Below are positions 27,173-49,313 of a stretch of 64,000 nucleotides of DNA, piece after piece. The stretch spans positions 186,001-250,000 of the forward strand of contig NZ_CAMLDC010000001.1 in NCBI RefSeq assembly GCF_946478805.1, in the 5' to 3' direction. The notes beneath the pieces were generated by a model. The model was given only the letters and a program-made list of their open reading frames with translations, was not told the origin of the DNA and searched no databases. This DNA comes from an uncultured Fluviicola sp. GTDB taxonomy: Bacteria; Bacteroidota; Bacteroidia; Flavobacteriales; Crocinitomicaceae. Position numbers and translations under genes: made by a program. Every line of letters starts with the position of its first letter. The first letter of the stretch is position 1.

Positions 27173-27203
27173 TTCCAACCTTTTTATTTTAGCTGTATCT
27201 TAG
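27173..27203 (+). promoter_or_regulatory. Putative ECF sigma promoter of the lipoprotein-sigma operon
   Basis: TTCCAACC (27173-27180), 14 bases, then GTATCTTAG (27195-27203). The same two boxes with the same spacing occur at 29800 and 49189. The AAC core in the -35 box is a general ECF feature. The start codon is at 27221, about 15 bases beyond the expected transcription start, so the sigma factor would drive its own operon. Confidence 0.6.
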
Positions 27204-27220
27204 CTTTAAATTGATTACAA

Positions 27221-27889
27221 ATGAAGGTCTTATACCTATTACTGATATTGGTGGTTGTTGGGACAGGTTGCGAAAAATACAACTTGAAACAACCGGCTTA
27301 CCTGGGGTTGAATTGGAGATTTGCCTCTACAAGCAATAGTCAAGGTAATTATACGATAACGAAAGGGTATTTTTACTCAAAGGAATTCAGTATTTCCGGT
27401 ACCAGGGAAAAAGGATCTCCGGTTGAGATAACGAAAAATTTACCGGATCCGCTTCAGAAGATACAGTTTTCAACCCAGGACGACTTGGGAATTTCATTGG
27501 ATATTCCGATGGGAGATTATACCGAATTTACGTTGAAAGCCTTGTTGGACAAAACAAATAACCCTTGTTTAAGATTGGAAGGAACTTATACCAAAGGGAA
27601 CTTAACTTATCCGATGATCATTGAATGGACCAACCTGGATGACTTGAGTTTTAAAGTACAAAATCCGTTCTTTTTGCAGAAAAAGAAGAATTACAAGATT
27701 TTTATCGGGTTTGATGTAAATAAATTATTGAATATTTCTTCCAGCTTTTTACAATCTCCTCCGATTTCAATGGAAAATGGAGTTGAGACAGTAGTTATCA
27801 GAAGTAATAGTGGAGGAAGCGGACCGGGACAATTTTATACAGCAATTACAGAACAATTACCAAATGCCTTGGTGTTAACGGTTGAATAA
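27221..27889 (+). CDS. Putative lipoprotein encoded with an ECF sigma factor
   Basis: 222 aa, no family recognised. A lipoprotein signal MKVLYLLLILVVVGTGC gives lipidated Cys17. The mature part is beta-rich with alternating polar and hydrophobic residues (NYTITKGYFYSKEFSISG, DIPMGDYTEFTLKALL) and reads like an immunoglobulin- or DUF4382-like sandwich, though I cannot name it. It follows an ECF-type promoter, and its stop codon abuts the sigma factor ATG without a gap. A role as envelope sensor or as target of the regulon is possible. Confidence 0.6.
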   Translation: MKVLYLLLILVVVGTGCEKYNLKQPAYLGLNWRFASTSNSQGNYTITKGYFYSKEFSISGTREKGSPVEITKNLPDPLQKIQFSTQDDLGISLDIPMGDYTEFTLKALLDKTNNPCLRLEGTYTKGNLTYPMIIEWTNLDDLSFKVQNPFFLQKKKNYKIFIGFDVNKLLNISSSFLQSPPISMENGVETVVIRSNSGGSGPGQFYTAITEQLPNALVLTVE

Positions 27890-28408
27890 ATGTCGGCAGA
27901 GTACAAAGATATTATCGAAGGGTGTGCGAATTGGGAACGAGCTGCACAGGAACGGTTATATCGTCTTTTCTCCAAAGACCTATTCAAGGTTTGCAAATTA
28001 TATGGCGCTGATACGCAGGATGCGGAAGACATGTTGCACGATGCTTACATGCATATTTACAAGAATATCGGATCCTATACATTCACAGGTTCATTCGAAG
28101 GTTGGCTCAGAAGAGTAACCGTGAACTGTTGCCTTCAAACTTTACGGAAACGGAAAAATTTCACCCAATTGGGGGATGTCCCATCCATCGATCAGGAAGA
28201 AACGGAATTGGAAACAGGAATTCCTTTTGCAAAAGTGCTGGAGGAAATCAATTTGTTGCCTACAAAAGCTGGTTTGGTGCTGAAATTATATGCTTTGGAA
28301 GGATGGTCGCATTCTGAAATTGCAGAGGAATTGGAAATCTCGGTTGGGACTTCCAAATCCCAGTTGAATTACGCTCGTTCCGTATTAAAACAAAAATTGG
28401 TTTCTTAA
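27890..28408 (+). CDS. ECF-type RNA polymerase sigma factor
   Basis: 172 aa with sigma region 2 (RLYRLFSKDLFKVCKLY, DAEDMLHDAYMHIYKNI, FEGWLRRVTVNCCLQTLRKR; about 22-88) and region 4 (LPTKAGLVLKLYALEGWSHSEIAEELEISVGTSKS, about 122-160). There is no region 1 or 3, as in group 4 (extracytoplasmic function) sigmas. It directly abuts the lipoprotein gene, and the next gene begins five bases later. Three matching promoter sites in the window are the likely targets, including its own operon. Confidence 0.9.
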   Translation: MSAEYKDIIEGCANWERAAQERLYRLFSKDLFKVCKLYGADTQDAEDMLHDAYMHIYKNIGSYTFTGSFEGWLRRVTVNCCLQTLRKRKNFTQLGDVPSIDQEETELETGIPFAKVLEEINLLPTKAGLVLKLYALEGWSHSEIAEELEISVGTSKSQLNYARSVLKQKLVS

Positions 28409-28413
28409 ATAGA

Positions 28414-29799
28414 ATGGCTCAAGAAAATCTAAATAATTCAAACAGGGAGTTTCAATCACTTCAAAAATCCTTCGGAAATTGGGATGCGGGTTTGCCGTCT
28501 TCTGATGTCTGGGAGAATTTGGAGGCTGATTTGGCTGTTTCTGCTGTTTGGGACCGTTTGGATGAAACCCTTGAAGCGAATGGAAGTTCTGCAGATAAAC
28601 CATTGGTTGAAGCCTATGAAAACTGGTCTCCGAATAATTCCGGTGATGGTTGGTCCAAACTGGAAGAGCAACTTTCCAGGGAACGGGTTTGGACACGTTT
28701 GAATACGACTTTAAGTTACCCGGTGACAACGAGTGTCCCTTGGATGAAAATGGCTGCAGCGTCGGTTATTTTTATGTTCCTGGCATTCTATACGGATCGT
28801 TACCCTGTTTCGAATCAGGCGCAGGAAACTCTTTTTGCATTCAATACGAGTGGAGATGGTGTGATTTCGGCAACACCGGATAATCGCCAGGTTGCTCAAT
28901 CGAATACTGCCGCAAACAATAATTCTTCTGTTAAAGGAACGAATCCGGTTTCTGTCAATGAAGTTGTAAATAGAATAGCGGAACAAAAAGCAAACGCTCA
29001 GAAACAATTGGCTTTGGCCAATCCGAACAAACAAACCAATGAACGAGGGGTAGAGAACAATAACGCGTTGAATGCGAATCAAAACCTCGCTCAAAATAGC
29101 ACGGTTCAGACAAACGAACCAAAAACCAATGGGGTAGCGGCTTCGAATGAGGAAACAAATACGAATCTAAATGACCTGGCTGATTTGGATGAATTGGGAA
29201 GAAAAGAGATCAGTGTTCAACCTGGTGTAATCGGAGATTTTGAATTCTTGCCTTATAAATCTCCATTCAAACCAAGATTCAGTGCCTTGGTTGGTGGGCA
29301 GTTTGCATTTATCAATGAGAAAGACCGGACCGCATTTTCCAGTTCGATTCCTTCCATGGGTATAGCTGCGGATTTCCAGTATCATTTATACTCGGGAAGA
29401 TTGCGGTTTACACAGGATTTAGGATTTAGCCAATATGCGCAATCAAACGGTAGTTATGTAAACGGGCGCTATACAAACTCAAACCAGAAATTGAACACCA
29501 TTTACCTGATGTCTTCTGTCGGATATACGTTTAAAGGCGTAACTGTTTACGGAGGAATTTCTGTGAATCGCCTGTTGAACGGTTACGAAGAAAGCAGAAC
29601 AGCGATTACGAATGTCTATAATTCGAAGAAATTACAAATCGGTGCAACAGCCGGAATCGATTACCACTTCACGCCATTCAGGAATAAAACAGCACTCGGT
29701 TTAGGAATGCAGTATCAGTTTGTTTCCCGATTGAAAAGTGAGAATGCGGTGTTTAATGACATACAAGGAGTGAAGCTCCAAATAAAATATTCATTTTAA
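28414..29799 (+). CDS. Candidate trans-envelope anti-sigma protein with C-terminal beta-barrel
   Basis: 461 aa, no signal peptide. Residues 1-107 are acidic, probably cytosolic, with an internal duplication: segments 20-53 and 68-100 each carry two W-x-x-L units (Trp33, 46, 80, 93; 13 residues apart within a pair, 47 between pairs). One transmembrane helix spans about 110-127. An Asn/Gln-rich linker of about 145 residues leads to about 288-461, rich in amphipathic beta strands (FSALVGGQFAF, YGGISVNRLL, ALGLGMQYQFV) and ending in KYSF, the terminal Phe typical of outer-membrane barrels. The position after an ECF sigma gene argues for an anti-sigma factor. Topology and function are predictions. 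Its stop codon abuts the next ECF-type promoter. Confidence 0.65.
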   Translation: MAQENLNNSNREFQSLQKSFGNWDAGLPSSDVWENLEADLAVSAVWDRLDETLEANGSSADKPLVEAYENWSPNNSGDGWSKLEEQLSRERVWTRLNTTLSYPVTTSVPWMKMAAASVIFMFLAFYTDRYPVSNQAQETLFAFNTSGDGVISATPDNRQVAQSNTAANNNSSVKGTNPVSVNEVVNRIAEQKANAQKQLALANPNKQTNERGVENNNALNANQNLAQNSTVQTNEPKTNGVAASNEETNTNLNDLADLDELGRKEISVQPGVIGDFEFLPYKSPFKPRFSALVGGQFAFINEKDRTAFSSSIPSMGIAADFQYHLYSGRLRFTQDLGFSQYAQSNGSYVNGRYTNSNQKLNTIYLMSSVGYTFKGVTVYGGISVNRLLNGYEESRTAITNVYNSKKLQIGATAGIDYHFTPFRNKTALGLGMQYQFVSRLKSENAVFNDIQGVKLQIKYSF

Positions 29800-29830
29800 T
29801 TCCAACCTTTTAAGATGTGATGCATCTAAG
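29800..29830 (+). promoter_or_regulatory. Putative ECF sigma promoter of a small RNA
   Basis: TTCCAACC (29800-29807), 14 bases, then GCATCTAAG (29822-29830), starting at the base after the stop codon of the putative anti-sigma gene. It has the same boxes and spacing as the sites at 27173 and 49189. No protein start follows on this strand before the terminator at 29944. Confidence 0.6.
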
Positions 29831-29835
29831 GGGTA

Positions 29836-29966
29836 AGAAAGATATTTATTTCGTTATCAACTTCTCCAAGGGAGTTTGAAAAATTACTACGGCTCAAACG
29901 ATAACGAAATAGTCGAGGCAAGGTAGAACTGGCTTGAATAAAGGTCCCACGCAAGTGGGACTTTTT
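29836..29966 (+). ncRNA. Putative small structured RNA under ECF control
   Basis: About 130 bases between an ECF-type promoter and a terminator, with no ATG or GTG. A 12-bp perfect stem TATTTCGTTATC (29847-29858) pairs with 29900-29911. Its 41-base loop can form smaller alternatives (CTCC/GGAG or GTTTGA/TCAAAC). The 3' part ends in the hairpin at 29944. It matches no tRNA, SRP, tmRNA or RNase P pattern I know; 6S-Flavo RNA cannot be ruled out by eye. The start is estimated from the promoter and the end is the T run. Confidence 0.45.
29944..29966 (+). terminator. Rho-independent terminator of the putative small RNA
   Basis: GTCCCAC-GCAA-GTGGGAC followed by five T: a 7-bp perfect stem with a tetraloop. 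Confidence 0.85.
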
Positions 29967-29970
29967 ATTT

Positions 29971-30044
29971 TTACCGTAAAGGCCACTGAGAACGCTAAGG
30001 GATACACTCTTTGCGTTCTTCCATTCTTTGCGTTTCAGTTTAAT
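29971..30044. repeat. Dispersed CTTTGCG repeat, copy 1
   Basis: Contains AACGCTAAGG and CTTTGCGTTCTTCCATTCTTT followed by GCG. The long block recurs with one change at 58191-58216, and related units are at 49330-49376. Such GCAAAG/CTTTGC intergenic repeats are common in Bacteroidota. It separates the small RNA from the convergent tlyA gene. Confidence 0.55.
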
Positions 30045-30047
30045 CCT

Positions 30048-30779
30048 TTATTTCTTCGTAGCAAACATCAGGAATTCCTTGTTTCCATCTCCACCGATAA
30101 TTGGAGAATCGATGATTCCGGTTACTTCAAAATGGGAATCGCTGGCTGCTTTTTCTATTCGTTTCAGGATCTCCGGATAAACTGAAGCACTTTTGACCAC
30201 TCCATGTTTGTTCAAAAAGCGTTTCTCCAATTCGAATTGCGGTTTGATCAGTGCAACCAAAGCGCCGCCTTCTTTTACGAAAGAACCGGTGAAGGGAAGT
30301 ACTTTTTCCAGTGAAATGAATGAAACGTCGATCACCATGCCGTCAACTGTTTCGGGAATATGCGTATTCGTTAATTCCCGGATGTGCGTTTTTTCAATAT
30401 TCGTTATGGAAGGATTCGTTCGAATGCGTTCATGTAATTGTCCATGTCCCACATCCACGCAAAAAACATGGCTTGCACCTTTGCTTAAAAGTACTTCAGT
30501 GAAACCACCTGTGGAAGCTCCCAGATCAATAAATGTCTTATCCGCAATCGGAATCTGGAAATGATCGATCGCTTTGAGCAATTTGAGAGCACCCCTTGAA
30601 ACCCATGTCAATTCCTCGTTCAAAAGTAGAATTTTGGCATCAATATGAATTTTCTTACCCGGTTTCTCTACGGAAATACCATTTACCAACACGTCGCCGT
30701 TTTTTATAAGCTCTTCACCGCGTGTCCGGGAGGTTACCAAGCCCCGATCGACTAATATTTTGTCCAAACGTTCTTCCAT
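30048..30779 (-). CDS. tlyA: TlyA-family rRNA 2'-O-methyltransferase (S4 + FtsJ-like)
   Basis: 243 aa. The N-terminal S4 RNA-binding domain (RLDKILVDRGLVTSRTRGEELI, VLVNG; 1-60) is followed by an FtsJ-like SAM methyltransferase: SRGALKL (Lys66), DLGASTGGFTEVLL (SAM motif 87-92), FCVDVGHGQL and DVSFISL. TlyA proteins 2'-O-methylate cytidines in 23S and 16S rRNA; some are still named hemolysin A. A perfect -7 element lies just before the ATG (30784-30791). It is one of the genes lying between the two suf halves. Confidence 0.88.
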   Translation of the reverse strand: MEERLDKILVDRGLVTSRTRGEELIKNGDVLVNGISVEKPGKKIHIDAKILLLNEELTWVSRGALKLLKAIDHFQIPIADKTFIDLGASTGGFTEVLLSKGASHVFCVDVGHGQLHERIRTNPSITNIEKTHIRELTNTHIPETVDGMVIDVSFISLEKVLPFTGSFVKEGGALVALIKPQFELEKRFLNKHGVVKSASVYPEILKRIEKAASDSHFEVTGIIDSPIIGGDGNKEFLMFATKK

Positions 30780-30783
30780 GCTG

Positions 30784-30791
30784 CAAAGTTA
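30784..30791 (-). promoter_or_regulatory. -7 promoter element of tlyA
   Basis: On the minus strand TAACTTTG, a perfect TAnnTTTG match, ending four bases before the ATG, so the mRNA would be nearly leaderless. Confidence 0.5.
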
Positions 30792-30870
30792 ACTAAATCC
30801 GAATTACGAATACCGAATTCTGAAACAGTTGGCAGGGAGATTCCGATTATTTAACCGGAAGATTAATATC

Positions 30871-30895
30871 TGAAATAAAGTGTCGCTTTATTTCA
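30871..30895. repeat. 10-bp perfect inverted repeat between divergent genes
   Basis: TGAAATAAAG-TGTCG-CTTTATTTCA lies between the divergent tlyA and the CHU_C gene at 31033, so it is unlikely to be a gene terminator. Its core resembles the inverted repeat at 16962-16999. The rest of 30792-31000 shows nothing else I can support. Confidence 0.5.
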
Positions 30896-31000
30896 CAAAA
30901 CCAACTGTGATTTCATCTAAAATCAATAAAATCAGGAAGATATGCAACTGAATATGGAATTTAACAGTCTAAAGTTTAGGATAATTGATAAAGCATTGGT

Positions 31001-31008
31001 TATCTTTG
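31001..31008 (+). promoter_or_regulatory. -7 promoter element
   Basis: TATCTTTG, a perfect TAnnTTTG match, 24 bases before the start at 31033. Confidence 0.5.
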
Positions 31009-31032
31009 CCTTTACATTAATCGGACACTACG

Positions 31033-32814
31033 ATGAAACTACTAACTAGTACGCTACTACTGGCATTACTATCTCCTGTTTGCTCTATTGGGCAGATTCT
31101 GTATTCAAATGGGGCAGTTATTTCCATTTCTTCAGGAGCTTTGGTTCAGGTGAATGGCGGGGCTGAGTTGGCTCAAACAACTACTTTGACGAATAACGGT
31201 TCCACGACCATTACAAAGAATTCGACGCTTCCAATTCCAGGGACATTCAAAATTGGAAACAATTCTACGGTAAACGGGAATGGATTTTATCGGGTTGAGC
31301 AGGATTGGATCAATAATGGTACCTTCAATAGTGGCACGTCTTCTGTTACCTTATTTGGAAATACCCAACAGTTCATTACTTCAACCAATGGAGTTTCTAC
31401 GATTTTCAATAACCTGATTCTGACTGGATCGGGCACAGGAAATAATCGAAAAAAAACGCTGCAAGGTGTCAATGCATCTACCGGTTCGACCGGAGTTTTA
31501 CAGATCAATGTTGCTGAACTGGAAACGCAAACAAATTCATTTTTCGTGTTGAACCCGGCTATTACGGCAGTGACTTATACCAATACATTCGGATCTGAAG
31601 GATTTGTAAGCAGTTTACTGCCAGGAACACTTTCCCGTTTGACGAATTCAACAAACACCTATATTTTCCCTACAGGTTCAAGCGATGGGACGGTGCGATT
31701 CAGACCGGTAGAACTTGTACCTCAGACAAATGAAGCATCAGAATATACAGTGCGTTTCAATAATTTTGATTCCAATACACAAACTTTCGACAGGACTCAG
31801 ACTGATGGCAACGAATGTTCCTTGAATCCGCTCTATTTCCATTCGATAGAACGGTTAGTTGGTTCTGCTCCGACCGATGTCAGATTGTTTTATGTTATTG
31901 CAACTGATAATGATTGGACTGGAATTGCTCATTGGAGAAATGCAAGCTCCAACTGGAATGACATGGGGACAACTACGGCAAGCCCGAATGGTGGATTTAC
32001 AACTCGCACACGCTCAGCTTGGAATTTTACAAATCCGGGACATCCATATATTTTATCTTCAGTCAAACCCGGACCGCCAACTTTGAATTGTCCTACAATT
32101 TGTGAGAACTCATTTAATAATGTATTCGCAGTAGTCGGAGGATCAGGAAACTTTCAGTGGACTTTCCCATCGAATGGAACCATTACATCCGGACAAGGAA
32201 CGTCATCGGTATTAGTTGATTGGACAACTGGAACAGGAGCTGTTTCGGTGGTCGATTTGGGTACCAATGGTTGTACTTCCCAATCGGGAACATGTACACC
32301 GACAATTAATCCATCTCCGAATGTTCAATTTTCCTATACGGAAGATGGAACGAGCTACAGCTTTACGGATAATACTAACGGATCAATATCCTGGGATTGG
32401 AATTTTGGTGACGGAGAAGGTTCCCAGATTCAGAATCCGGGTCACACCTATGAAGATGGAGCTGAAGGATATCAGGTCACTTTGATGGTTACCGGTTCAA
32501 ATGGTTGTATGGGAAGTTTGACACAAACAATTGAAATTTTCCAGGATATTGTAGTTCCGAATATCATTACACCTAATGACGACGGCACGAACGACATTTT
32601 TCTGATCAAAACTGCAGGAATTAAATCTTATAACCTCGTTATCGTAAATCGATGGGGGAATACCATGTTTGTATCGAGTGATCCGTCACATATTTGGGAC
32701 GGGAAGGTGGATGGCAAACCGGTTGATGAAGGGGTTTATTTTTATAAACTGAAAGCCTCATCTGCTTCAAAAGAATACAATTATCAAGGTAATGTAACAG
32801 TTATCAGAAACTAA
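31033..32814 (+). CDS. Secreted T9SS type B (CHU_C) protein with PKD domain
   Basis: 593 aa. Signal peptide MKLLTSTLLLALLSPVCSIGQ. Residues about 25-220 form a Thr/Asn-rich beta region (GSTTITKNSTLPIPGTFKIG) like the filamentous or choice-of-anchor domains of surface proteins. The middle part (TGTSDGTVRFRPVELV-like and HWRNASSNWNDMG) is typical of Bacteroidota polymeric surface proteins. A PKD domain (WDWNFGDGEG, about 450-500) and a type B sorting domain (PNIITPNDDGTND, VNRWGNTMF, WDGKVDG) end it. It is followed 13 bases later by the collagen-like gene and probably forms an operon with it. Confidence 0.8.
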   Translation: MKLLTSTLLLALLSPVCSIGQILYSNGAVISISSGALVQVNGGAELAQTTTLTNNGSTTITKNSTLPIPGTFKIGNNSTVNGNGFYRVEQDWINNGTFNSGTSSVTLFGNTQQFITSTNGVSTIFNNLILTGSGTGNNRKKTLQGVNASTGSTGVLQINVAELETQTNSFFVLNPAITAVTYTNTFGSEGFVSSLLPGTLSRLTNSTNTYIFPTGSSDGTVRFRPVELVPQTNEASEYTVRFNNFDSNTQTFDRTQTDGNECSLNPLYFHSIERLVGSAPTDVRLFYVIATDNDWTGIAHWRNASSNWNDMGTTTASPNGGFTTRTRSAWNFTNPGHPYILSSVKPGPPTLNCPTICENSFNNVFAVVGGSGNFQWTFPSNGTITSGQGTSSVLVDWTTGTGAVSVVDLGTNGCTSQSGTCTPTINPSPNVQFSYTEDGTSYSFTDNTNGSISWDWNFGDGEGSQIQNPGHTYEDGAEGYQVTLMVTGSNGCMGSLTQTIEIFQDIVVPNIITPNDDGTNDIFLIKTAGIKSYNLVIVNRWGNTMFVSSDPSHIWDGKVDGKPVDEGVYFYKLKASSASKEYNYQGNVTVIRN

Positions 32815-32826
32815 TCAAAAAGGATC

Positions 32827-33813
32827 ATGCAACAAAAACACAACTTTATTGCTGCTATCGCATTTATCTTTGGATTAAACGCGGTGTATGCTCAAAACAA
32901 TGTTGGAATTGGAACTACTACTCCGAATCCGAATGCAATTTTGGAAATGCAATCAACTAATCAAGGGGTATTAGTACCAAGAATGACAACCGTTCAACGG
33001 AATGCTATTGCAGCACCTACCGAAGGTTTGCTTGTTTATGATATTGATGTGAACTGTTTTTTCTTTTACGAAAGTAGTTCAACTTCCTGGCAAAATTTAT
33101 GTAATGCGGGTGGAGTGGGTCCGGCAGGTCCTCAAGGTCCAGCGGGAGCTACAGGTCCGGCAGGACCAACTGGCCCCCAAGGCCCGGCAGGAACAAACGG
33201 TATTAATGGTGCAGCAGGTGCAACCGGTCCGGCTGGTGCTCAAGGCCCGGCGGGAGTAGCGGGTCCGGCAGGTCCCCAAGGTCCGGCTGGAATAAATGGA
33301 ATTGATGGTGCAGTTGGCGCAACTGGTCCGGCTGGTGCTACAGGCCCGGCAGGAGCGACCGGTGCAACGGGACCTCAGGGACCAGCGGGTCCAACAGCTA
33401 ATCCGGCCAGTGCTTCTTTAGCTTCAGATTTTACGATTACGAATGCAACATTTGTCAATATACCAGGGGTGAGTGTTACATTTACAGCCACTAAAACAAG
33501 TGCATTGGTGATATTCACCTCTTCAGGTTTTGGATATACGAATTCAATGTCTTATGTTAATTTCCGGATTATGAATGGGGCAACTTCATATGGAGGTACG
33601 AATACGAATATTCAGAATTATGATGATGTTACGGGAACCACAACAACATGGAGTTGTGCCTGGTCCAAAAATATAACCGGTTTGACGGTTGGGAATAGCT
33701 ACACGTTTTTTGTTCAGGGTTCTGTTGGGCTTGTTTCAGGAACAGATGACGCAGTTATCAATGCAGCGTCTTTACCAAATAATTGCCACGTAACCTTATC
33801 TGTAATTCCTTAA
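32827..33813 (+). CDS. Secreted collagen-like protein
   Basis: 328 aa. Signal peptide [23 protein letters not shown]. Residues about 24-96 form a fibre-head-like region ([19 protein letters not shown] ... [15 protein letters not shown]) common to Bacteroidota fibre proteins. Then come 31 uninterrupted Gly-X-Y triplets (about 100-192), dominated by GPA, GPQ and GAT, which can form a triple helix. A C-terminal beta domain of about 130 residues ([23 protein letters not shown]) could be the trimerising or binding head. No T9SS sorting domain is visible, so the export route past the outer membrane is unclear. It lies between a CHU_C gene and a small secreted protein. Confidence 0.82.
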
Positions 33814-33815
33814 AT

Positions 33816-34040
33816 ATGAAAAAAAGTTTAATTATACTGATCGTATTAATCAGTGGTTATAGTTATGGACAGGAAATTGATAAAAAAGTTCCCGAGCCGA
33901 AGTTAGCTACTGAACCAGTTAACACTCCCAATAATGATAAAAAACCGGAATTGAAGCTAGTTGATCCTTCGACAGCTAAAGATGAAAGGTTGAAAAAAGT
34001 GCCTTTGGGAAAACCCGAATTAAAATTAATCTCAAAATAG
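33816..34040 (+). CDS. Small secreted protein with repeated KPELKL motif
   Basis: 74 aa from ATG 33816, two bases after the collagen-like stop; an in-frame upstream extension to 33783 lies inside that gene. Signal peptide MKKSLIILIVLISGYSYGQ. The mature 55 residues are charged, Lys/Pro-rich and likely disordered, with KKPELKLVDPS and GKPELKLISK as an imperfect repeat. No family is recognised. It is probably cotranscribed with the collagen-like gene and ends at the palindromic terminator. Confidence 0.6.
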   Translation: MKKSLIILIVLISGYSYGQEIDKKVPEPKLATEPVNTPNNDKKPELKLVDPSTAKDERLKKVPLGKPELKLISK

Positions 34041-34043
34041 GAC

Positions 34044-34077
34044 ATAAAAAAAGGAAGTAGCTACTTCCTTTTTTTAT
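34044..34077. terminator. Bidirectional terminator, 34-base perfect palindrome
   Basis: Two 17-base arms (ATAAAAAAAGGAAGTAG and complement) meet without a spacer and supply A and T runs for both directions. It lies between the small secreted protein and the convergent sufD. Confidence 0.88.
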
Positions 34078-34089
34078 ACTCTGTTGTTT

Positions 34090-35361: not shown

Positions 35362-35368
35362 GATTTAA

Positions 35369-36121: not shown

Positions 36122-36151
36122 ACCTATTAATTCATTTACCACCCTCCTCAA

Positions 36152-40942: not shown

Positions 40943-40964
40943 CAGGATAAACAAATAGAAATTT

Positions 40965-41011
40965 AAAGGTGTGCAGATATTGATATCCAATGATTTGCAT
41001 ACCTTTTTTTT
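40965..41011 (+). terminator. Rho-independent terminator
   Basis: An 11-bp stem (AAAGGTGTGCA with TGCATACCTTT, one G-T pair) closes over a loop with an inner GATAT/ATATC pair and runs into eight T. Confidence 0.82.
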
Positions 41012-41069
41012 GAAATGCAACCTTTTTTTCATATCTTCGTTTACACTACGTTACTTATTGCTACTAAAT

Positions 41070-44000
41070 ATGAAACTTACTACTACTCTGATAGGGATCC
41101 TGTCAGTATTTTCGACGGCTCTAGCTCAATTTCCGGGATGTCCGAGTGTGGATGCGGGAGCAGATCAGACTCTTACTTGTAATCAGCCATGCGCAACACT
41201 GAATGCGGTTCCGTTTCATGCAGGTGCTACAACGACTTATACGGTAGCTTCGATTCCTCATACACCACCAATTGCATATAATCAGGCAGGTGGAACAGGG
41301 GTTTCAGTAGGTACCGATGATGTTTGGAGTCCTCAAATTACATTACCGTTTACCTTTTGTTATTATGGTCAATCATATACAAGTTGTAAAATTGGATCGA
41401 ATGGCTCCATTAAATTTGGAACATATGCCCCAACCAGCCAACCCTGGTCATTTACTGCTTCATGTCCCTCAACAAGTCTGACAACAGCTGGTGATGTCTT
41501 TGGGATTTATCATGATATTGACCCATCCTATGGTGGAACTGTGAAATGGTATGTTGTAGGATCGGCTCCATGTAGGATATTTGTAGTATCCTATAATGGG
41601 TTGCCCCACTATTCGTCCTCTTGTAATAACAGTGTTTTCTCAACATTTATGATGGTATTATATGAAACCACGAATGTGATAGACGTTTATGTCAACAATA
41701 AAGGGTTATGTTCCAGTTGGAATGGGGGTGCAGCAATTATAGGGATTCAAAATCCGGCCGGTACGGCTGGAATTGCGGCCCCTAACAGAAATACCACACC
41801 AAATTGGACAGTTTCGACACCTGAAGGATGGCGCTTTACTCCAAACGGAGCACCGATTTACACGACTGAATGGTTCCAAGGAGGAACGAGTATAGGCACC
41901 GGAACCACGGTAAACGTTTGCCCTACAGCAACTACAACATATACTGCTCAAGTGACTTATACAGCTTGTGATGGAACGGTGATTGTCAAGACTGACAATA
42001 TGATTGTTTCTCCTGATCCTTCAACTCCTTCCGGAAATGAAATTGCTTCAACACCCCCTTCTTGTGCCGGGGCAACGGGTAGTTTCGAGGTCCAGGGAAC
42101 CGGTGGTGCAGGTGGTTATCAATATTCGATTGATAACGGAGTAACCTGGCAAGTGAGCGGAGTGTTTACAAACCTTGCTGCAGGTAATTATACTATTTTG
42201 GTTCAGGATATGAATGGCTGTCAAGGAAGTATTGCTGCAACTGTTGGTCCGTCAAGTACAATTGATCTAACATTGGCAAGCAGCACGGATGTTTCTTGTA
42301 ATGGTGGTTCAAACGGTTCGGCTGTAACAGCTATTTCAGGTGGGCAAATTCCATATACATACACATTAAACGGCGGGTCGACTCAATCCGGTGGCACTTA
42401 TTCGAACTTAACTGCGGGTAATTATACTATTGAAGTGACAGACGCGAACGGATGCACGGATACTCAACCTGTAACTATTACACAACCGACGGCTGTAACA
42501 ATTTCTTTTGTGTCGGCAACAGATGCGAGTTGCTCCGGGAGTGATGGAAGCTTAACGGTATCCGGATCCGGAGGGACCGGGACATTGCATTATTCTTCGA
42601 ATGGAGGAGCATCACAAACCAGCCCGACATTTAACAATGTAGCTGGTGGAACCTATACGATCCAAGTTGTTGACGATAACGGTTGTCCTGCATCCGTGCC
42701 GGCTATAGTGGGTATTGTAAACAACTTGACGGCTCTTTTAATAGGTAATCAAGATGTATCCTGCAATGGATTAAGTGATGGAAGTGCACAACTTGGAGGC
42801 GCAGGAACTCCGTTGCCGTATACTTATTCTCCTGTAGGAGGTTCTCCTCAGGTATCGAATACATTTACAAGTTTAGCAGTAGGAACATATAACTATGTTG
42901 TCACAGACGGGAATAATTGTCACGATACAATTTCAGTTACAATTGCCCAACCTACTCCTGTTAACGTGACTACGAATACACCATTGTCTACATGTGCTGG
43001 TGGTAGCGTCACTATGAATGCCCAGGCGACGGGAGGAAATGGATGGTATGTTTTCACATGGAGTAATTCATTACCAAACGGGTCAAGCAATACCGTTAGT
43101 CCGGCTGGGACAACAAATTATACGGTTACTGCAACAGACGCGAACGGATGTGCTGCAAATTCAACCATTCAAGTAACGGTGAATCCGAATCCGCCAATTA
43201 ATGCCGGGACTGATCAGGCAGTCTGTATAGGGGGGGCAGTGGTGCTAAGCGGTTCGGGAGTACAATCTTATACCTGGAATAATGGCGTTTCAAATGGTGT
43301 TTCATTTACACCGGCTTCTACACAAACTTATACGGTTACAGGAATAGATGCTAACGGTTGTCAGGGATCAGATCAAGTAGTTGTTACCGTAAACCCCCTT
43401 CCTGCGGTTGATGCGGGGGCGGTGCAAACCGTTTGCCAGGGGACTTCTGTAACATTGAATGGTTCAGGGGCGGTTTCTTATACCTGGAATAATGGAGTGA
43501 CAAATGGTATTTCGTTTATTGCAAGTTCCACACAGACATATACAGTAACAGGGACTAACGCGAACGGATGTACGAACACGGATCAGGTAACGATAACGGT
43601 GAATCTGCCTTCTCCTGTTAATGCAGGAATTGATCAGTCCGTTTGTCAGGGTGGATCAGTAACATTAACTGGAACCGGAACTCAAACATATAGCTGGAAT
43701 AATGGGGTTACGAATGGAATAGCATTTACACCCGGGTCCACACAAACGTATACAGTAACCGGTACGGATATAAATGGTTGTCAAAGTACAGACCAAGTAG
43801 TTGTAACAATAAATCCGCTTCCAAATGTGAATGCAGGTGCTGATCAATCTATCTGTATTGGAGGTGCAGTGACTCTTTCAGGCTCAGGAGCTCAGACATA
43901 TGTTTGGAATAATGGAGTTACAAACGGAATATCATTTACTCCCGGATTTACTCAAACATATACGGTTACCGGAACAGATATAAATGGCTGTGTAAATACA

Positions 44001-44558
44001 GATCAGGTTACAGTTACAATTGTTCCTTTGCCTATTGCAGTTGTTTCTGCTGATATCACAGAAGGATTCCCGGCCCTGACGGTGAATTTCGATAATAATT
44101 CTTTGAATGCGACCAGCTATAACTGGTCCTTTGGGAATGGGGCACAGGCAAATTCAAATAATACGTCCGGAGAGCAATATGTTTACACAAACCCAGGTGA
44201 ATACCTGGTGATTTTGACTGCTGCGAATGGCTTATGTACGGATACGGACAGCTTATTGATAACGGTTAATCCGCTTCCGGATCCAATTGTAATGGTACCA
44301 AATATCTTTACTCCGAATGGAGATAATAATAATGATACATTCTTCATTACCGTTAGTTACGTAAAGTCTGTTAAAGTGACTATCGTGAACCGCTGGGGAG
44401 ACAAAATGTGCATGTACGACAATGTCCAAGGTTATTGGGACGGTAGCTGGAATGGAAACATAGCTTCAGAAGGGGTTTATTTCTTTACGTATGAAATCGA
44501 AGGTGTTAACGGGAAGGTGCTTACAGGCCAGGGAGATATCCAACTGATAAGAAATTAA
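41070..44558 (+). CDS. Giant secreted T9SS type B adhesin with SprB and four Ig-like repeats
   Basis: 1162 aa from ATG 41070 (signal peptide MKLTTTLIGILSVFSTALAQ); a longer frame to 40971 would begin in the terminator. After a short cysteine segment comes a nidogen-like/globular region (IPYNQAGG-like, WSPQITLPFTFCYYGQ ... GWRFTPNG, about 60-280). SprB-type repeats follow (GGYQYSIDNGVTWQ, YTILVQDMNGCQGS, about 350-700). Then four 70-residue Ig-like units (about 710-990; DNA about 43195-44035), a PKD-like segment (YNWSFGNGAQ) and a type B sorting domain (PNIFTPNGDNNND, VNRWGDKM, WDGSWNG). SprB repeats are known from the mobile gliding adhesin SprB. Confidence 0.82.
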   Translation: MKLTTTLIGILSVFSTALAQFPGCPSVDAGADQTLTCNQPCATLNAVPFHAGATTTYTVASIPHTPPIAYNQAGGTGVSVGTDDVWSPQITLPFTFCYYGQSYTSCKIGSNGSIKFGTYAPTSQPWSFTASCPSTSLTTAGDVFGIYHDIDPSYGGTVKWYVVGSAPCRIFVVSYNGLPHYSSSCNNSVFSTFMMVLYETTNVIDVYVNNKGLCSSWNGGAAIIGIQNPAGTAGIAAPNRNTTPNWTVSTPEGWRFTPNGAPIYTTEWFQGGTSIGTGTTVNVCPTATTTYTAQVTYTACDGTVIVKTDNMIVSPDPSTPSGNEIASTPPSCAGATGSFEVQGTGGAGGYQYSIDNGVTWQVSGVFTNLAAGNYTILVQDMNGCQGSIAATVGPSSTIDLTLASSTDVSCNGGSNGSAVTAISGGQIPYTYTLNGGSTQSGGTYSNLTAGNYTIEVTDANGCTDTQPVTITQPTAVTISFVSATDASCSGSDGSLTVSGSGGTGTLHYSSNGGASQTSPTFNNVAGGTYTIQVVDDNGCPASVPAIVGIVNNLTALLIGNQDVSCNGLSDGSAQLGGAGTPLPYTYSPVGGSPQVSNTFTSLAVGTYNYVVTDGNNCHDTISVTIAQPTPVNVTTNTPLSTCAGGSVTMNAQATGGNGWYVFTWSNSLPNGSSNTVSPAGTTNYTVTATDANGCAANSTIQVTVNPNPPINAGTDQAVCIGGAVVLSGSGVQSYTWNNGVSNGVSFTPASTQTYTVTGIDANGCQGSDQVVVTVNPLPAVDAGAVQTVCQGTSVTLNGSGAVSYTWNNGVTNGISFIASSTQTYTVTGTNANGCTNTDQVTITVNLPSPVNAGIDQSVCQGGSVTLTGTGTQTYSWNNGVTNGIAFTPGSTQTYTVTGTDINGCQSTDQVVVTINPLPNVNAGADQSICIGGAVTLSGSGAQTYVWNNGVTNGISFTPGFTQTYTVTGTDINGCVNTDQVTVTIVPLPIAVVSADITEGFPALTVNFDNNSLNATSYNWSFGNGAQANSNNTSGEQYVYTNPGEYLVILTAANGLCTDTDSLLITVNPLPDPIVMVPNIFTPNGDNNNDTFFITVSYVKSVKVTIVNRWGDKMCMYDNVQGYWDGSWNGNIASEGVYFFTYEIEGVNGKVLTGQGDIQLIRN
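43195..44035 (+). repeat. Four tandem 210-base repeats coding Ig-like units
   Basis: Each unit codes (V/I)(D/N)AG..Q.(V/I)C.G..V.L.G.G...Y.WNNGV.NG..F....TQTYTVTG...NGC...DQV..T. The period is about 210 bases. DNA similarity is high enough for slippage or recombination with the copies at 40003-40420 and 46045-47089. Confidence 0.75.
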
Positions 44559-44567
44559 AATAGAATG

Positions 44568-44602
44568 GGTGTGTTGGTTGTTAATATTCAAACCAACGCA
44601 CC
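44568..44602 (+). terminator. Probable rho-independent terminator
   Basis: A 12-bp stem GGTGTGTTGGTT / AACCAACGCACC (one G-T pair) with an 11-base loop. Only a weak T stretch (TATTTG) follows. Confidence 0.6.
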
Positions 44603-44664
44603 TATTTGCGTTAAAAGTGTTGATTTATTGAGTGTTATGTTTTTTTTCTTGAAATATAAATTCA

Positions 44665-44672
44665 TAAATTTG
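44665..44672 (+). promoter_or_regulatory. -7 promoter element
   Basis: TAAATTTG, a perfect TAnnTTTG match, 59 bases before the start at 44732. A GGGCGATT/AATCACCC imperfect hairpin lies in the leader (about 44689-44710). Confidence 0.4.
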
Positions 44673-44731
44673 ATTACTAATACATTGAGGGCGATTTAAA
44701 TAATCACCCGATTTTACTTACTACTACTAAT

Positions 44732-45022
44732 ATGAAAAAAATTGTTTTTTTACAGTTGTGTCTGTTTATTGGCACTAGTTTCGTGTTTTCCCAAGAAGGT
44801 CCTGGAACGCAAACACCTACTCAAAGCATCACTTATCAATCTATTTCAGAAAAATCAAAAACTGAAACGCTTGAGGTAATCTATGATTTAATCGATCGGT
44901 GTTCTCTTTCTGAATTTAATAAATTACATGAACACTTTGTTTATAAAGCCAGGACGGAACCTACTGATCGGAACAAGGCCATTCTGGCCTACATTAAAAA
45001 TAAAAAAAATCAACCTAAATGA
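44732..45022 (+). CDS. Small secreted protein preceding a T9SS type B adhesin
   Basis: 96 aa. Signal peptide MKKIVFLQLCLFIGTSFVFSQ. The mature part is charged and probably helical (KTETLEVIYDLIDRCSLSEFNKLHEHFVY), ending in a basic tail (KNKKNQPK). No family is recognised. It overlaps the adhesin start by four bases (ATGA), so the two are translationally coupled. It sits like the small protein at 38463 but shows no clear similarity to it. Confidence 0.6.
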   Translation: MKKIVFLQLCLFIGTSFVFSQEGPGTQTPTQSITYQSISEKSKTETLEVIYDLIDRCSLSEFNKLHEHFVYKARTEPTDRNKAILAYIKNKKNQPK

Positions 45023-47610
45023 AACACCTAATTCTAACACTACTACTATTACTGTCATTAAAAGGATTTTCACAGCCACCTTGTGGAAGTAACCCTGCGG
45101 CAGGTAATACTTGCGCAACTGCAACTCCGATTTGTGAGTTGAATGGATACTGCGGAAACACATCTGCTTCTTATACGGTTAATACCTGGAGTCAGTCCTG
45201 CGGATTTCTTGGTTTGGGTGATTGCGGATTGAGTGGAGAATTTTGCGGTTCCATTGAGAATAATTCATTTCTTACTTTTGTTGCTTCATCAACTTCCATA
45301 TCATTTGATTGCTGGGTATATAATTCAACCTACGGAGATGGGATTCAGATTATGATTTTCTCAGCGAACAATTGTTCTGGAACAGTTACTTCCTATTATT
45401 GCAGTCAGCTGGCACCATCTACTGGATCTCAATCAGTTAGCGCGTCTGGATTGACGCCTGGAAATACTTATTATATCATGATTGATGGTTTTGCCGGAGA
45501 TATTTGTAATTATACATTTGCCGCAAATACCGGAGTTGCCATTCCGGTAGATGTTTCACCTGCAAATTCTTCTATCTGTGTCGGAGAAACTGTTACTTTG
45601 ACTGCAACTGGAGGAAATGGGGCATTTACGTGGGTTGCTTCGCCAAATCTAAGTGGAACGACCGGATCAACTGTAACAGCAACCCCTCCAACTACTCCGG
45701 GAACCTATACCTATACAGTCAATTCTGCAACTGGCAACCCTTTGTGTCCGTCTTCTACAACTGCAACTGCAACTATCGTGGTGAATCCATGCGGATGTAC
45801 CGTAACAACAACGAATAACGGACCGGTTTGTGCCGGAACGAATACTGTTGATTTGTTTGCTACAACAATTGCCGGCGCAACTTATTCCTGGACAGGTCCC
45901 AATGGATTTACTTCAAGTGCTCAAAATCCAACAGGTGTTCCAATTCCAAGTACACCGGGGACTTATAACTTCACTGTTGATATTAATGACAACGGTTCTT
46001 TGTGTTCTTCTACGACAACTGTTACAGTCAATGGGTTACCGGTGGTTAGTGCCGGAACTAACATTTCAATTTGTATTGGCGGTTCGGCAACTTTATCAGG
46101 TTCAGGAGCTCAAAGTTATACATGGAATAATGGAGCGGCTAATGGAGTTTCGTTTAACCCAACCGGAAATCAAACTTATACCGTTACCGGTACCGACGCC
46201 AATGGCTGTCAGAATACAGATCAAGTAGATTTGGTTGTTAATCCATTGCCTGCCGTAAGTGCCGGAGCGCCACAGGCTGTTTGCCAGGGAGCTTCAATAA
46301 TCTTATCTGGCTCAGGTGCTCAAAGCTACACTTGGAATAATGGCGTAACGAATGGCGCTTCTTTTATACCGTTATCGACTCAAACTTATACGGTTACAGG
46401 TGCAGACGTCAACGGTTGTCAAAATACCGGTCAGGTAGTTGTGACTGTCAATCCACTTCCGATTGTTGAAGCAGGCTTGCCTCAAGCTGTTTGTCAGGGA
46501 ACAAGTGTTACGCTTGCAGGTTCCGGTGCTCAAAGTTATACTTGGAATAATGGTGGTATAGATAATGTACCTTTTACTCCGAATGTGACATTGACTTATA
46601 TCTGTACGGGAACAGACGCCAATGGTTGTCAGAATACGGATCAGGTAATCGTGACAGTCAATCCAAGCCCGACTGTAAACGCGGGGAATAACCAAACGGT
46701 TTGTGCGGGAACAAGTGTCACGCTCTCTGCTTCTGGAGCTTCCAATTATGTTTGGAACAACGGAGTCACAAATGGAATTGCGTTTACACCAGGATCCACT
46801 CAAACTTACACGGTTACAGTGAGTTTAAATGGTTGTCAGTCAACAGACCAAGTGACAGTAACTGTAAATTCGCTTCCGGTTGTGAATGCGGGACCGGATC
46901 AATCGGTTTGTATTGGAGATGAAATAACACTTTCCGGTTCCGGTGCACAAAATTATATCTGGAACAATGGTATTACAGACGGTATTTCATTTATACCGGG
47001 ATCAACCCAAACTTATACTGTTACAGGAACCGATGGAAATGGATGCACAGATACGGATCAGATTACAATTACGATTGTGTTGATTCCAACTGCCAGTGTT
47101 TCTGCAGATGTAACGAACGGAAGTCCTGTTTTGACTGTCAATTTTGACAATAATTCGACTAATGCATCAACTTATCATTGGAGTTTTGGAGATGGCTTTC
47201 AATCAAACGCATCTACTTCGGTCGGTCAACAATACGGATATACCATTCCGGGTGAATATGTGGTTGTTTTAACTGCTGTAAATGGTGCTTGTATAGATAC
47301 AGATACCCTATTGATTACAGTGATCCCGGTTCCGGATCCGATTGTAGTGATCCCGAATATCTTCACCCCGAATGGAGATCATGCTAATGACCAGTTTTTT
47401 CTGGATGTCAGCTACGCGAAATCGGTTAAAGTGCAGATTGTAAACCGTTGGGGAGATAAAATGTTCGATTATGATAATGTACAAGGCTATTGGGATGGAA
47501 CCGTCAATGGAAATCTGGCTTCCGAAGGGGTTTATTTCTTCAATTACCGGGTTGAAGGTCTGAATGGAACGGTTCTTAGTGGTCATGGTGATATTCAACT
47601 TATAAGATAA
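45019..47610 (+). CDS. Secreted T9SS type B adhesin with five Ig-like repeats
   Basis: 863 aa. Signal peptide MKHLILTLLLLLSLKGFSQ. The N-terminal domain (GNTCATATPICELNGYCGNTS ... SFDCWVYNSTYGDGIQIMIFS ... YYIMIDGFAGDICNYTF, about 25-175) is a beta-sandwich common in this phylum, of pre-peptidase C-terminal type. Ig-like segments follow (about 180-340), then five 70-residue repeats (about 343-690), PKD-like (YHWSFGDGFQ) and a type B sorting domain (PNIFTPNGDHAND, VNRWGDKM, WDGTVNG). Its C-terminal half is close to the gene at 41070. The upstream small secreted protein overlaps its start. Confidence 0.82.
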   Translation: MKHLILTLLLLLSLKGFSQPPCGSNPAAGNTCATATPICELNGYCGNTSASYTVNTWSQSCGFLGLGDCGLSGEFCGSIENNSFLTFVASSTSISFDCWVYNSTYGDGIQIMIFSANNCSGTVTSYYCSQLAPSTGSQSVSASGLTPGNTYYIMIDGFAGDICNYTFAANTGVAIPVDVSPANSSICVGETVTLTATGGNGAFTWVASPNLSGTTGSTVTATPPTTPGTYTYTVNSATGNPLCPSSTTATATIVVNPCGCTVTTTNNGPVCAGTNTVDLFATTIAGATYSWTGPNGFTSSAQNPTGVPIPSTPGTYNFTVDINDNGSLCSSTTTVTVNGLPVVSAGTNISICIGGSATLSGSGAQSYTWNNGAANGVSFNPTGNQTYTVTGTDANGCQNTDQVDLVVNPLPAVSAGAPQAVCQGASIILSGSGAQSYTWNNGVTNGASFIPLSTQTYTVTGADVNGCQNTGQVVVTVNPLPIVEAGLPQAVCQGTSVTLAGSGAQSYTWNNGGIDNVPFTPNVTLTYICTGTDANGCQNTDQVIVTVNPSPTVNAGNNQTVCAGTSVTLSASGASNYVWNNGVTNGIAFTPGSTQTYTVTVSLNGCQSTDQVTVTVNSLPVVNAGPDQSVCIGDEITLSGSGAQNYIWNNGITDGISFIPGSTQTYTVTGTDGNGCTDTDQITITIVLIPTASVSADVTNGSPVLTVNFDNNSTNASTYHWSFGDGFQSNASTSVGQQYGYTIPGEYVVVLTAVNGACIDTDTLLITVIPVPDPIVVIPNIFTPNGDHANDQFFLDVSYAKSVKVQIVNRWGDKMFDYDNVQGYWDGTVNGNLASEGVYFFNYRVEGLNGTVLSGHGDIQLIR
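46045..47089 (+). repeat. Five tandem 207-210-base repeats coding Ig-like units
   Basis: Unit starts are at about 46045, 46255, 46465, 46675 and 46882, so the phase is kept at 210, 210, 210 and 207 bases. The fourth unit lost one codon. They belong to the same family as the units in the genes at 38780 and 41070. Confidence 0.8.
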
Positions 47611-48621: not shown

Positions 48622-49153
48622 CTTGCTTTTTGGACAGGACACCCTGAAAATTTACAAGTGGGAAGCAATTCAAAAGGCAAACCCTGATACAATTTTAGGA
48701 ATTGATGCTTCTAAGTTGAAATGGGAAACAATCCCCGAAAAACTATATTCCTTTAAGAATCTCAAATACTTGAATCTTTCAAAAAACAAATTGAAGGAAC
48801 TTCCTTTGGAAATGGGTGTTTTCAAATCACTTAAAACATTGGATGTGACGAAGAATGATCTGGATACTGCCCCGATTGTGATTTGTCAGTTTCCAAAACT
48901 TCAAAAACTGCATTTGGCAAGAAATAAAATATCTTCTTTGCCGGCTTGCATCGGTTATCTGGCAGACTTAAAGGTTCTGGACATTTGGGATAACCCGATA
49001 AACTCGTTGCCGGAAGAGATTCTCAAGTTAAAAAAACTGGAAGCGGTTGATATGAGATCCATCATGTTAGGTCCGCATTTTCAACAAAAATGGGAGGAAT
49101 CTATGCCGCAAGTGAAGTGGTATTTCGATCCGCCGTGTCATTGTGTGGAATGA
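48581..49153 (+). CDS. Secreted leucine-rich-repeat protein
   Basis: 190 aa. Signal peptide MKLLLAIIFLCTNSLLFGQ. About five LRR units (LKYLNLSKNKLKELPLEMG, LKTLDVTKNDLDTAPIVIC, LQKLHLARNKISSLPACIG, LKVLDIWDNPINSLPEEIL) of 23 residues, the plant/bacterial short LRR type. A Cys-containing tail (PPCHCVE) ends it. It probably mediates protein binding in the periplasm. Its start lies 41 bases inside ribF, so expression depends on ribF transcription. It is followed by the second ECF-type promoter/small RNA unit. Confidence 0.8.
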   Translation: MKLLLAIIFLCTNSLLFGQDTLKIYKWEAIQKANPDTILGIDASKLKWETIPEKLYSFKNLKYLNLSKNKLKELPLEMGVFKSLKTLDVTKNDLDTAPIVICQFPKLQKLHLARNKISSLPACIGYLADLKVLDIWDNPINSLPEEILKLKKLEAVDMRSIMLGPHFQQKWEESMPQVKWYFDPPCHCVE

Positions 49154-49188
49154 TCTTTCAATAAAAAAAATATTTTTTTCATTTTTTT

Positions 49189-49219
49189 TTCCAACCATTT
49201 AAAAATACCCGCATCATAG
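49189..49219 (+). promoter_or_regulatory. Putative ECF sigma promoter of a second small RNA
   Basis: TTCCAACC (49189-49196), 14 bases, then GCATCATAG (49211-49219): the same boxes and spacing as at 27173 and 29800. No ATG lies between it and the terminator at 49282. Confidence 0.6.
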
Positions 49220-49224
49220 GGGTG

Positions 49225-49313
49225 TCAAGTATATATCAGAAATCTCTCTGATTGGTTTGGTAAATTGGGTTTTAGGTTTGGAAAAGGGTACTATTTGGAT
49301 TGTACCCTTTTTC
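49225..49313 (+). ncRNA. Putative second small RNA under ECF control
   Basis: About 90 bases from the expected start to the terminator, without an ATG. A 6-bp hairpin ATCAGA-AATCTC-TCTGAT (49235-49252) is followed by a U/G-rich single-stranded stretch (GGTTTGGTAAATTGGGTTTTA) and the terminator stem. The G/U-rich part could pair with C/A-rich leader sequences. There is no clear similarity to the RNA at 29836 beyond the promoter. The start is estimated. Confidence 0.42.
49282..49313 (+). terminator. Rho-independent terminator
   Basis: A 10-bp stem AAAAGGGTAC/GTACCCTTTT with a 10-base loop and T run, 128 bases after the last plus-strand stop codon. Confidence 0.85.

What the first reader, a model, noticed from the sequence alone, without database searches (positions are those of the whole stretch)
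27173..49313. An ECF sigma regulon visible within one window: three identical-layout promoters, two of them driving putative small RNAs
Seen: TTCCAACC, exactly 14 bases, then G[CT]ATC[AT][AT]AG occurs at 27173, 29800 and 49189. I found no other intergenic match in the 64 kb. The first site precedes the lipoprotein-sigma-membrane protein operon; the other two precede short gene-free stretches ending in strong terminators. Known: ECF -35 elements carry an AAC core, and ECF operons are often autoregulated. Inference: this sigma factor recognises all three sites and acts partly through small RNAs, as RpoE does in enterobacteria with MicA/RybB. I know of no description of such an arrangement in Bacteroidota.
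Basis: partly seen in the sequence, partly recalled or inferred. Interest (0 to 1): 0.85.

Follow-up and report, generated by a model that had tools for sequence, protein, structure and literature searches.

The report
Envelope sigma factor with two sRNAs
In Fluviicola, a freshwater bacterium of the Bacteroidota, a stress-type sigma factor that is probably held by an anchor spanning both membranes appears to switch on its own operon, two conserved small RNAs and a secreted protein, an arrangement best known from gut enterobacteria.

Summary
In detail: TTCCAACC-N14-GYATCWWAG occurs exactly at 27173, 29800 and 49189, with no other match up to 2 mismatches. The window is Fluviicola or close kin. 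In 15 related genomes the pattern has 16 exact matches, all at orthologues of these sites. Forms of sites 1 and 2 are kept in 13 of 13 genus genomes with the sigma factor, site 3 in 12. Sites 2 and 3 each precede a conserved terminated noncoding RNA: one keeps its main stem with different letters in divergent genomes, the other has a nearly invariant single-stranded core. The third operon gene has Dma architecture. New: a fourth conserved site before a T9SS cargo gene in all 13, absent in the genus genome without the sigma factor. The regulon reading is well supported by comparison; no transcript data exist here. Trans-acting sRNA function is likely but unshown: no target beat shuffled controls. 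Novelty needs softening: an ECF-type motif before a putative sRNA is reported in Flavobacterium psychrophilum (PMC9723704).

The parts
27173..27203 (+). Site 1: ECF-type promoter (-35 TTCCAACC, -10 GTATC) of the lipoprotein-sigma-Dma operon
   Evidence: Exact match; a form of it at the same place in 13 of 13 genus genomes that have the sigma factor, three of them with TTACAACC
27221..27889 (+). Predicted lipoprotein, first gene of the operon (Cys after a hydrophobic leader)
   Evidence: ORF; aligned with 8 orthologues, C17 invariant; no Pfam or NCBIfam match
27890..28408 (+). ECF sigma factor (Sigma70_r2 and Sigma70_r4_2)
   Evidence: Pfam E 1.5e-11 and 4e-11; relatives 53-98% identical in 11 loci
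28414..29799 (+). Predicted Dma-type anti-sigma factor: helical N-terminus about 10-101, TM helix about 110-127, disordered tether about 128-280, 8-strand barrel about 289-461
29800..29830 (+). Site 2: ECF-type promoter of sRNA A, starting at the base after the Dma stop codon
   Evidence: Exact match; a form of it at the same place in 13 of 13 genus genomes with the sigma factor
29831..29966 (+). sRNA A, about 135 nt: long stem P1 with a conserved apical region, hairpin P2 with loop AAGGUAGAACUGG, terminator. 5' end inferred
   Evidence: Fold z -5.4 for 29830-29975; P1 kept with different letters in G006, G007, G008, G012; one strong model hit in each of 9 of 240 family genomes
49189..49219 (+). 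Site 3: ECF-type promoter of sRNA B
   Evidence: Exact match; a form of it in 12 of 13 genus genomes with the sigma factor (11, G006)
49220..49314 (+). sRNA B, about 95 nt: small 5' hairpin, single-stranded core GGUUUGGUAAAUUGGGUUUUAGGUUUGG, terminator. 5' end inferred
   Evidence: Alignment of 12 sequences; one strong model hit in each of 12 of 14 genus genomes; lies before the convergent ddl 3' end in 12 of 12 examined

Best explanation
This is an ECF sigma regulon of a Dma/Das-like envelope sensor. Inferred mechanism: the third operon protein spans both membranes, with its barrel in the outer membrane and its N-terminus holding the sigma factor in the cytoplasm; envelope disturbance releases the sigma factor; it directs RNA polymerase to TTCCAACC-N14-GYATC promoters. 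These drive its own operon (positive autoregulation), sRNA A directly behind the anchor gene, sRNA B before ddl, and a T9SS-secreted protein gene elsewhere. The sRNAs most likely carry the repressive, post-transcriptional arm by pairing through conserved exposed sequences: the core of sRNA B and the two loops of sRNA A. Shown by sequence comparison: conserved promoter-like sites, co-occurrence with the sigma factor, conserved noncoding RNAs, predicted anchor architecture. Inferred: sigma binding, release signal, transcription, trans-action and targets.
For: Genome-wide specificity: 16 exact matches in 15 genomes, all 16 at the three orthologous places. Held-out check: the G006 sRNA B was in neither training set, yet the RNA model and the promoter profile found it at adjacent positions (E 1.1e-17 and 9.6e-5). 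A fourth site before a T9SS cargo gene in 13 of 13 genus genomes with the sigma factor and not in G013, which lacks it. A looser form of the promoter gives 82 matches in 14 genomes against 8 for the reversed control, 0 in G013. A CAACC -35 element precedes 11 of 12 more distant operons of the same type. RNA evidence. Dma architecture: compared with PMC13088901 section 6.
Against: No RNA data. Each genus genome holds 7-19 matches to the sigma alignment, so another ECF could use these sites. G013 is a single negative control, of unknown completeness (2.9 Mb). G117 and G119 carry weak sRNA B relatives with a CCAACC..GTC promoter, but no operon of this kind with that motif showed in the 10 of 13 sigma matches whose loci were fetched. 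Target screens gave nothing above shuffled or reversed controls. The N-terminal part of the anchor model is low confidence (pLDDT about 34-51). G009 has the operon, but I see no sRNA A behind its anchor gene. sRNA B pairs covary little (2 of 26).
Confidence: 0.72

Rival explanations
1. The promoters are real ECF promoters, but a paralogous ECF sigma, or several with overlapping specificity, uses the two sRNA promoters; this sigma factor controls only its own operon.
For: 7-19 matches to the sigma alignment per genus genome. Related sites with TTACAACC and CGTC or TATC recur in 9 genomes, before a signal-leader gene in the 6 inspected. F. psychrophilum motif SM6 is suspected to be shared by several ECFs (PMC9723704).
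Against: The sRNA promoters resemble the operon promoter in -35, spacing and -10, and are missing together with the sigma factor in G013; sRNA A sits next to the operon in all 13 genus genomes with the sigma factor.
Confidence: 0.15
2. The two RNAs are made under sigma control but do not pair with mRNAs. They bind or titrate a protein, or, for sRNA A, serve as the operon's 3' end and terminator.
For: 26 nt of the sRNA B core are invariant in 12 sequences apart from added T in two, and are rich in repeated GGUUU, more than a seed needs. No target above control; in the 479-pair screen the real sRNA B core pairs in both genomes less often than shuffled ones (60 pairs against a mean of 88.6). sRNA A directly follows the Dma gene.
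Against: sRNA A has its own promoter-like site in all 13 genus genomes with the sigma factor and mostly keeps loop motifs while its stems change, more than a terminator needs. The screen covered 479 ortholog pairs, a small part of a 4.6 Mb genome.
Confidence: 0.22
3. The transcripts encode small conserved peptides rather than acting as RNA.
For: Other promoter-like sites in G003 and G004 precede a tiny membrane peptide, so small ORFs are possible targets of such promoters.
Against: The sRNA B core carries 1 and 2 added T in G005 and G007, which breaks any frame; sRNA A stems are replaced wholesale in four genomes and its loops carry indels.
Confidence: 0.03
4. Chance motif or a dispersed repeat.
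For: The motif was chosen after seeing the sites; hits with up to 2 mismatches are only two to three times as frequent as in the reversed control.
Against:: exact matches only at conserved places, co-occurrence with the sigma factor, 82 against 8 control matches.
Confidence: 0.01

Closest known systems
[quoted passage not shown] PMC13088901: abstract, sections 6 and 7 and passages read; the Dma1 paper PMC10927553 was not held)
   Same: Operon with an ECF sigma factor, a further protein and an anchor with helical N-terminus, TM helix, long disordered tether and C-terminal barrel; das2 and neighbours rise in the dma2 mutant, in line with the autoregulation inferred here
   Different: Fluviicola has two conserved sRNA genes under the same promoter type; 'small RNA' occurs 0 times in the Dma2 paper ('sRNA' was not searched there). 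ECF21 membership of this sigma factor was not tested
Sigma-E (RpoE) with MicA and RybB in enterobacteria (recalled, no call)
   Same: Autoregulated envelope-type ECF sigma factor with at least two dedicated, independently terminated sRNAs with conserved exposed cores
   Different: The predicted anti-sigma is not RseA-like but a two-membrane anchor; sRNA targets and Hfq dependence unknown; in several genomes the sRNA genes lie close to the sigma operon
SM6 promoters of Flavobacterium psychrophilum, including putative sRNA Rfp11 and an ECF-sigma/anti-sigma operon (PMC9723704: section 15 part 1 and passages read)
   Same: Bacteroidota; ECF-type motif before both a sigma/anti-sigma operon and a putative regulatory RNA, with mapped transcription starts
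   Different: One RNA in the printed selection; a T9SS-linked motif possibly shared by several ECFs; sigma factor not firmly assigned; Rfp11 was not compared with sRNA A or B here

Membership tests
[quoted passage not shown]
   Helices predicted at low confidence, conserved tryptophans, no Pfam or NCBIfam match
[quoted passage not shown]
   By prediction only: helix 110-127, then low-confidence stretch about 128-280 (pLDDT mostly 26-46) with little secondary structure; no TM predictor was run
[quoted passage not shown]
   Window and 13 related loci examined
[quoted passage not shown] loss alters vesiculation | not testable with these tools
   Needs genetics
ECF21 sigma group | Membership in the ECF21 phylogenetic group | not tested
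   No ECF-group library was on hand; among the 25 NCBIfam families shown only the sigma70-ECF superfamily is above its cut-off
ECF-dependent regulatory sRNAs of the MicA/RybB kind | sRNA gene with an ECF promoter like that of the sigma operon | tested here: met
   By sequence:
ECF-dependent regulatory sRNAs of the MicA/RybB kind | Short noncoding transcript with own terminator and conserved exposed region | tested here: met
   by sequence only, no transcript data
ECF-dependent regulatory sRNAs of the MicA/RybB kind | Base-pairs with outer-membrane-protein or other mRNAs | tested here: inconclusive
   No pairing above controls in 14 genomes for near-full matches, 43 window genes or 479 ortholog pairs; most gene starts not screened for short pairing
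ECF-dependent regulatory sRNAs of the MicA/RybB kind | Depends on an RNA chaperone such as Hfq | not tested
   No search made

The most novel reading that the evidence does not exclude
Bacteroidota evolved on their own an envelope stress response that works like sigma-E with MicA/RybB: an anchor tethered in both membranes frees an ECF sigma factor that both activates a few genes and, through two dedicated trans-acting sRNAs, represses others. The nearly invariant 28-nt sRNA B core would be a multi-target pairing or protein-binding platform of a new kind in a phylum where sRNA mechanisms are barely known.
Probability: 0.5. Interest if true: 0.8.

Novelty: new variant of a known kind. Interest (0 to 1): 0.64.

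Why it matters
How Dma-linked sigma factors change cell-surface make-up and vesiculation is unresolved (the PMC13088901 abstract calls the dma2 mechanism elusive). An sRNA arm under such a sigma factor would offer a route for repression that a sigma factor alone cannot provide. It gives a compact test bed: one operon, two sRNAs and one secreted protein, with a motif specific enough to find by eye. It also yields two RNA families without an Rfam gathering match and a promoter signature (TTCCAACC) for finding regulons of this sigma type in other Bacteroidota.

Tried and rejected
Rfam scan of the window: 0 matches at gathering threshold. Pfam and NCBIfam for the lipoprotein and the anchor: none.

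Coding potential of the RNAs: rejected because of frame-breaking indels.

An sRNA A pattern with a fixed gap range matched only 2 of 240 genomes because I set the gap too long for most members; replaced by model R3. With filters off, R3 reaches three of the four divergent copies only weakly (G008 E 8e-4, G012 0.029, G006 0.07) and G007 not meaningfully (2.2).

A near-full antisense site of the sRNA B core: at up to 3 mismatches 25 hits in 14 genomes, 12 of them the sRNA gene itself at 0 mismatches and 13 others, all with 3 mismatches, against 14 for the reversed control; their gene contexts were not inspected.

Pairing with 43 window genes: 3 of 129 tests pass the 1% level of shuffled queries, about 1.3 expected. 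Operon 5' ends of 14 genomes: no pairing that is strong in all (no separate null was made for these). Two-genome ortholog screen: the best hits are reached by 21, 65 and 31 of 100 mononucleotide-shuffled queries.

A CUAC/GUAG loop-loop contact in sRNA A was considered by eye and not kept: the CUAC side is missing in G005 and G006.

The BFVD (viral) structure library was not used. No ECF-group phylogeny was made. Hfq or other RNA-binding proteins were not searched.
Full report
What was claimed and checked. The three sites are exactly as described, with no other match at up to 2 mismatches in 64 kb. Site 1 precedes a predicted lipoprotein, an ECF sigma factor and a 461-residue protein; site 2 starts at the base after that protein's stop codon; site 3 lies between an LRR gene and the convergent ddl gene.

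Where the window comes from. The closest named relative of the sigma factor is from Fluviicola (P0002, 90%), and 10 of the 11 loci are 77-98% identical to it (the eleventh 53%). L006, recorded as Glaciecola amylolytica, carries a 94% identical sigma factor in the same gene context. No whole genome is held for the window itself.

Conservation of the sites. Of 16 one-mismatch matches, 7 are at orthologous site 2 or 3, 2 at the fourth site described below, and 7 elsewhere. In total up to 2 mismatches there are 98 matches against 31 for the reversed control, and 35 against 19, so many two-mismatch hits are noise. Thirteen of the 14 genus genomes searched have a clear orthologue of the sigma factor (E below 1e-95); G013 has none, its best being 1.2e-40. 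Site 3 is present in 12 of 13: 11 extracted, G006 found later, G010 not found, its operon contig being only 8.4 kb. A profile was made from 34 of the 40 extracted sites; the 6 left out are site-1 sequences identical or nearly so to others. In each of the 13 genomes its best hits are exactly these sites (the top three, two in G010), while the best hit in G013 has E 0.09 (only 150 first-look candidates per genome were scored). The profile was trained on these sites, so this ranking is not independent. The independent parts are the window-only pattern, the held-out G006 site 3 (promoter E 9.6e-5 directly before an RNA hit of 1.1e-17) and the fourth site.

A fourth member. A gene for a T9SS cargo protein (Por_Secre_tail, E 1.2e-14 for the G015 copy) is in 14 of 14 genus genomes. 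In 13 of 13 with the sigma factor, TTCCAACC (TTACAACC in G005), followed at the same spacing by a YATT-type -10, lies 109-146 bases upstream of the search match; in G013, which lacks the sigma factor, no CAACC lies within 190 bases upstream. G013 is one genome of unknown completeness, so this control is suggestive. A looser search, TTMCAACCTTT-N12-YRTY, finds 82 matches in the 14 genomes against 8 for the reversed control and 0 in G013. By my count from that list, 36 are sites 1-3, 12 the T9SS cargo and 9 a TTACAACC..CGTC/TATC site, which lies before a signal-leader gene in the 6 inspected; 25 are others. The regulon, or a family of overlapping ECF regulons, is thus larger than three sites.

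Sigma assignment. Of 12 more distant lipoprotein-sigma-anchor operons inspected (L154 was cut by its contig end and left out; L065 is a paralogous operon of G008), 11 carry a CAACC -35 element about 35-65 bases before the first gene (9 TTCCAACC, 1 TTGCAACC, 1 TTACAACC), followed by CATC, TATC or CGAC as likely -10, unclear in L065; L152 is the exception (starts set by eye). This footprint supports autoregulation by this sigma type. It does not exclude that a paralogue also reads the sRNA promoters.

The RNAs. sRNA A (window 29831-29966): fold energy z -5.4 (that stretch ran from 29830 to 29975). In 10 of 14 sequences the letters themselves are highly conserved. In the other four (G006, G007, G008, G012) the main stem has different letters yet still pairs, for example CACUGUC/GACAGUG, AAAUGCAUCAUU/AAUGAUGCGUUU and CAUCGUC/GACGAUG. 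The apical AAAAUUACUAC is kept in G007, G008 and G012 but lost in G005 and G006; GUAGAACUGG is kept in 13 of 14, all but G007. Single folds of the divergent copies are less striking (z -1.1 for G008, -1.8 for G007, -3.7 for G006). Model R3, built from the 10 similar sequences, finds one strong copy in each of 9 of 240 family genomes, always at site 2, plus one weak second hit in G010; it misses the four divergent ones at the filters used. sRNA B (49220-49314): in 12 aligned sequences the single-stranded stretch GGUUUGGUAAAUUGGG-UUUU-AGGUUU is invariant apart from 1 and 2 added T in G005 and G007, while the flanking LRR and ddl proteins fall to 51-71% identity in G006, G007, G008 and G012 (LRR not matched in G007). 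There is one strong copy in each of 12 of 14 genus genomes; weaker relatives with a CCAACC..GTC promoter appear in G119 and G117. Paired columns of sRNA B covary little (2 of 26 pairs), so its 5' hairpin rests on thermodynamics, not covariation.

The sensor. The third protein has no family match, but its model shows helices, one hydrophobic helix, a disordered stretch and an 8-strand barrel like NspA and OmpA. PMC13088901 describes this architecture for Dma proteins and a three-gene operon with a putative ECF21 sigma factor. The N-terminal domain is modelled poorly, so sigma binding is inferred.

Function. Targets were sought in three ways without success: a near-full antisense match (13 non-self hits against 14 for the reversed control), duplex energies against 43 window genes and the operon 5' ends, and 479 orthologous gene starts of two genomes. 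The screens were partial, so the trans-acting role stays an inference from architecture; protein binding is a serious rival for sRNA B.

Known or new. ECF-dependent sRNAs are classical in enterobacteria (recalled). In Bacteroidota, PMC9723704 (section 15 part 1 and passages read) reports an ECF-type motif before a putative sRNA, Rfp11, and before an ECF/anti-sigma operon. PMC10861873 (passages read) raises the possibility of an sRNA acting on an ECF/anti-sigma pair, the opposite direction. The listings of my paper searches and the passages read showed no description of sRNAs under a Dma-linked sigma factor; no paper held both Fluviicola and sRNA as whole words (0). The library holds open-licence papers only. 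I file this as a new variant of a known kind.

Noticed in passing
L006 (CP034120.1): Record titled Glaciecola amylolytica carries a sigma factor 94% identical to the window's and the same gene context; it looks like a mislabelled Fluviicola relative.
   Followed up: partly
L098:415-1422 and orthologues L200-L213: Fourth conserved promoter-like site before a T9SS cargo gene in 13 of 13 genus genomes with the sigma factor.
   Followed up: yes
L215, L223, L227, L233, L236, L237: TTACAACCTTTTGTATAATTTGGCGTC-type site (TATC in one), in 9 genomes in the list, just before a gene with a signal-like leader in these 6; possibly another ECF's promoter.
   Followed up: partly
L214 and L221 near 1501: Promoter-like site before a tiny predicted membrane peptide (25 and 22 residues, read by eye) in G004 and G003.
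   Followed up: no
L143 near 1472 and L146 near 1600: Distant sRNA B relatives in G119 and G117 with CCAACC..GTC promoters, although no lipoprotein-sigma-Dma operon with that motif was seen among the fetched sigma loci there.
   Followed up: partly
window 25147-38085: The sigma operon and neighbours at about 27.2-34.0 kb interrupt what looks like a suf iron-sulphur gene cluster (SufS-like 25886-27121; SufD/C/B-like 34090-37671; named from the translations, not searched).
   Followed up: no
window 31033-47610: Run of large repetitive secreted proteins whose C-termini look like gliding-motility or T9SS domains, two of them preceded by short secreted proteins (read by eye).
   Followed up: no
L011 near 11839 (G009): The Crocinitomicaceae relative has a TTCCAACC site behind its anchor gene, but I see no sRNA A following it.
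   Followed up: partly
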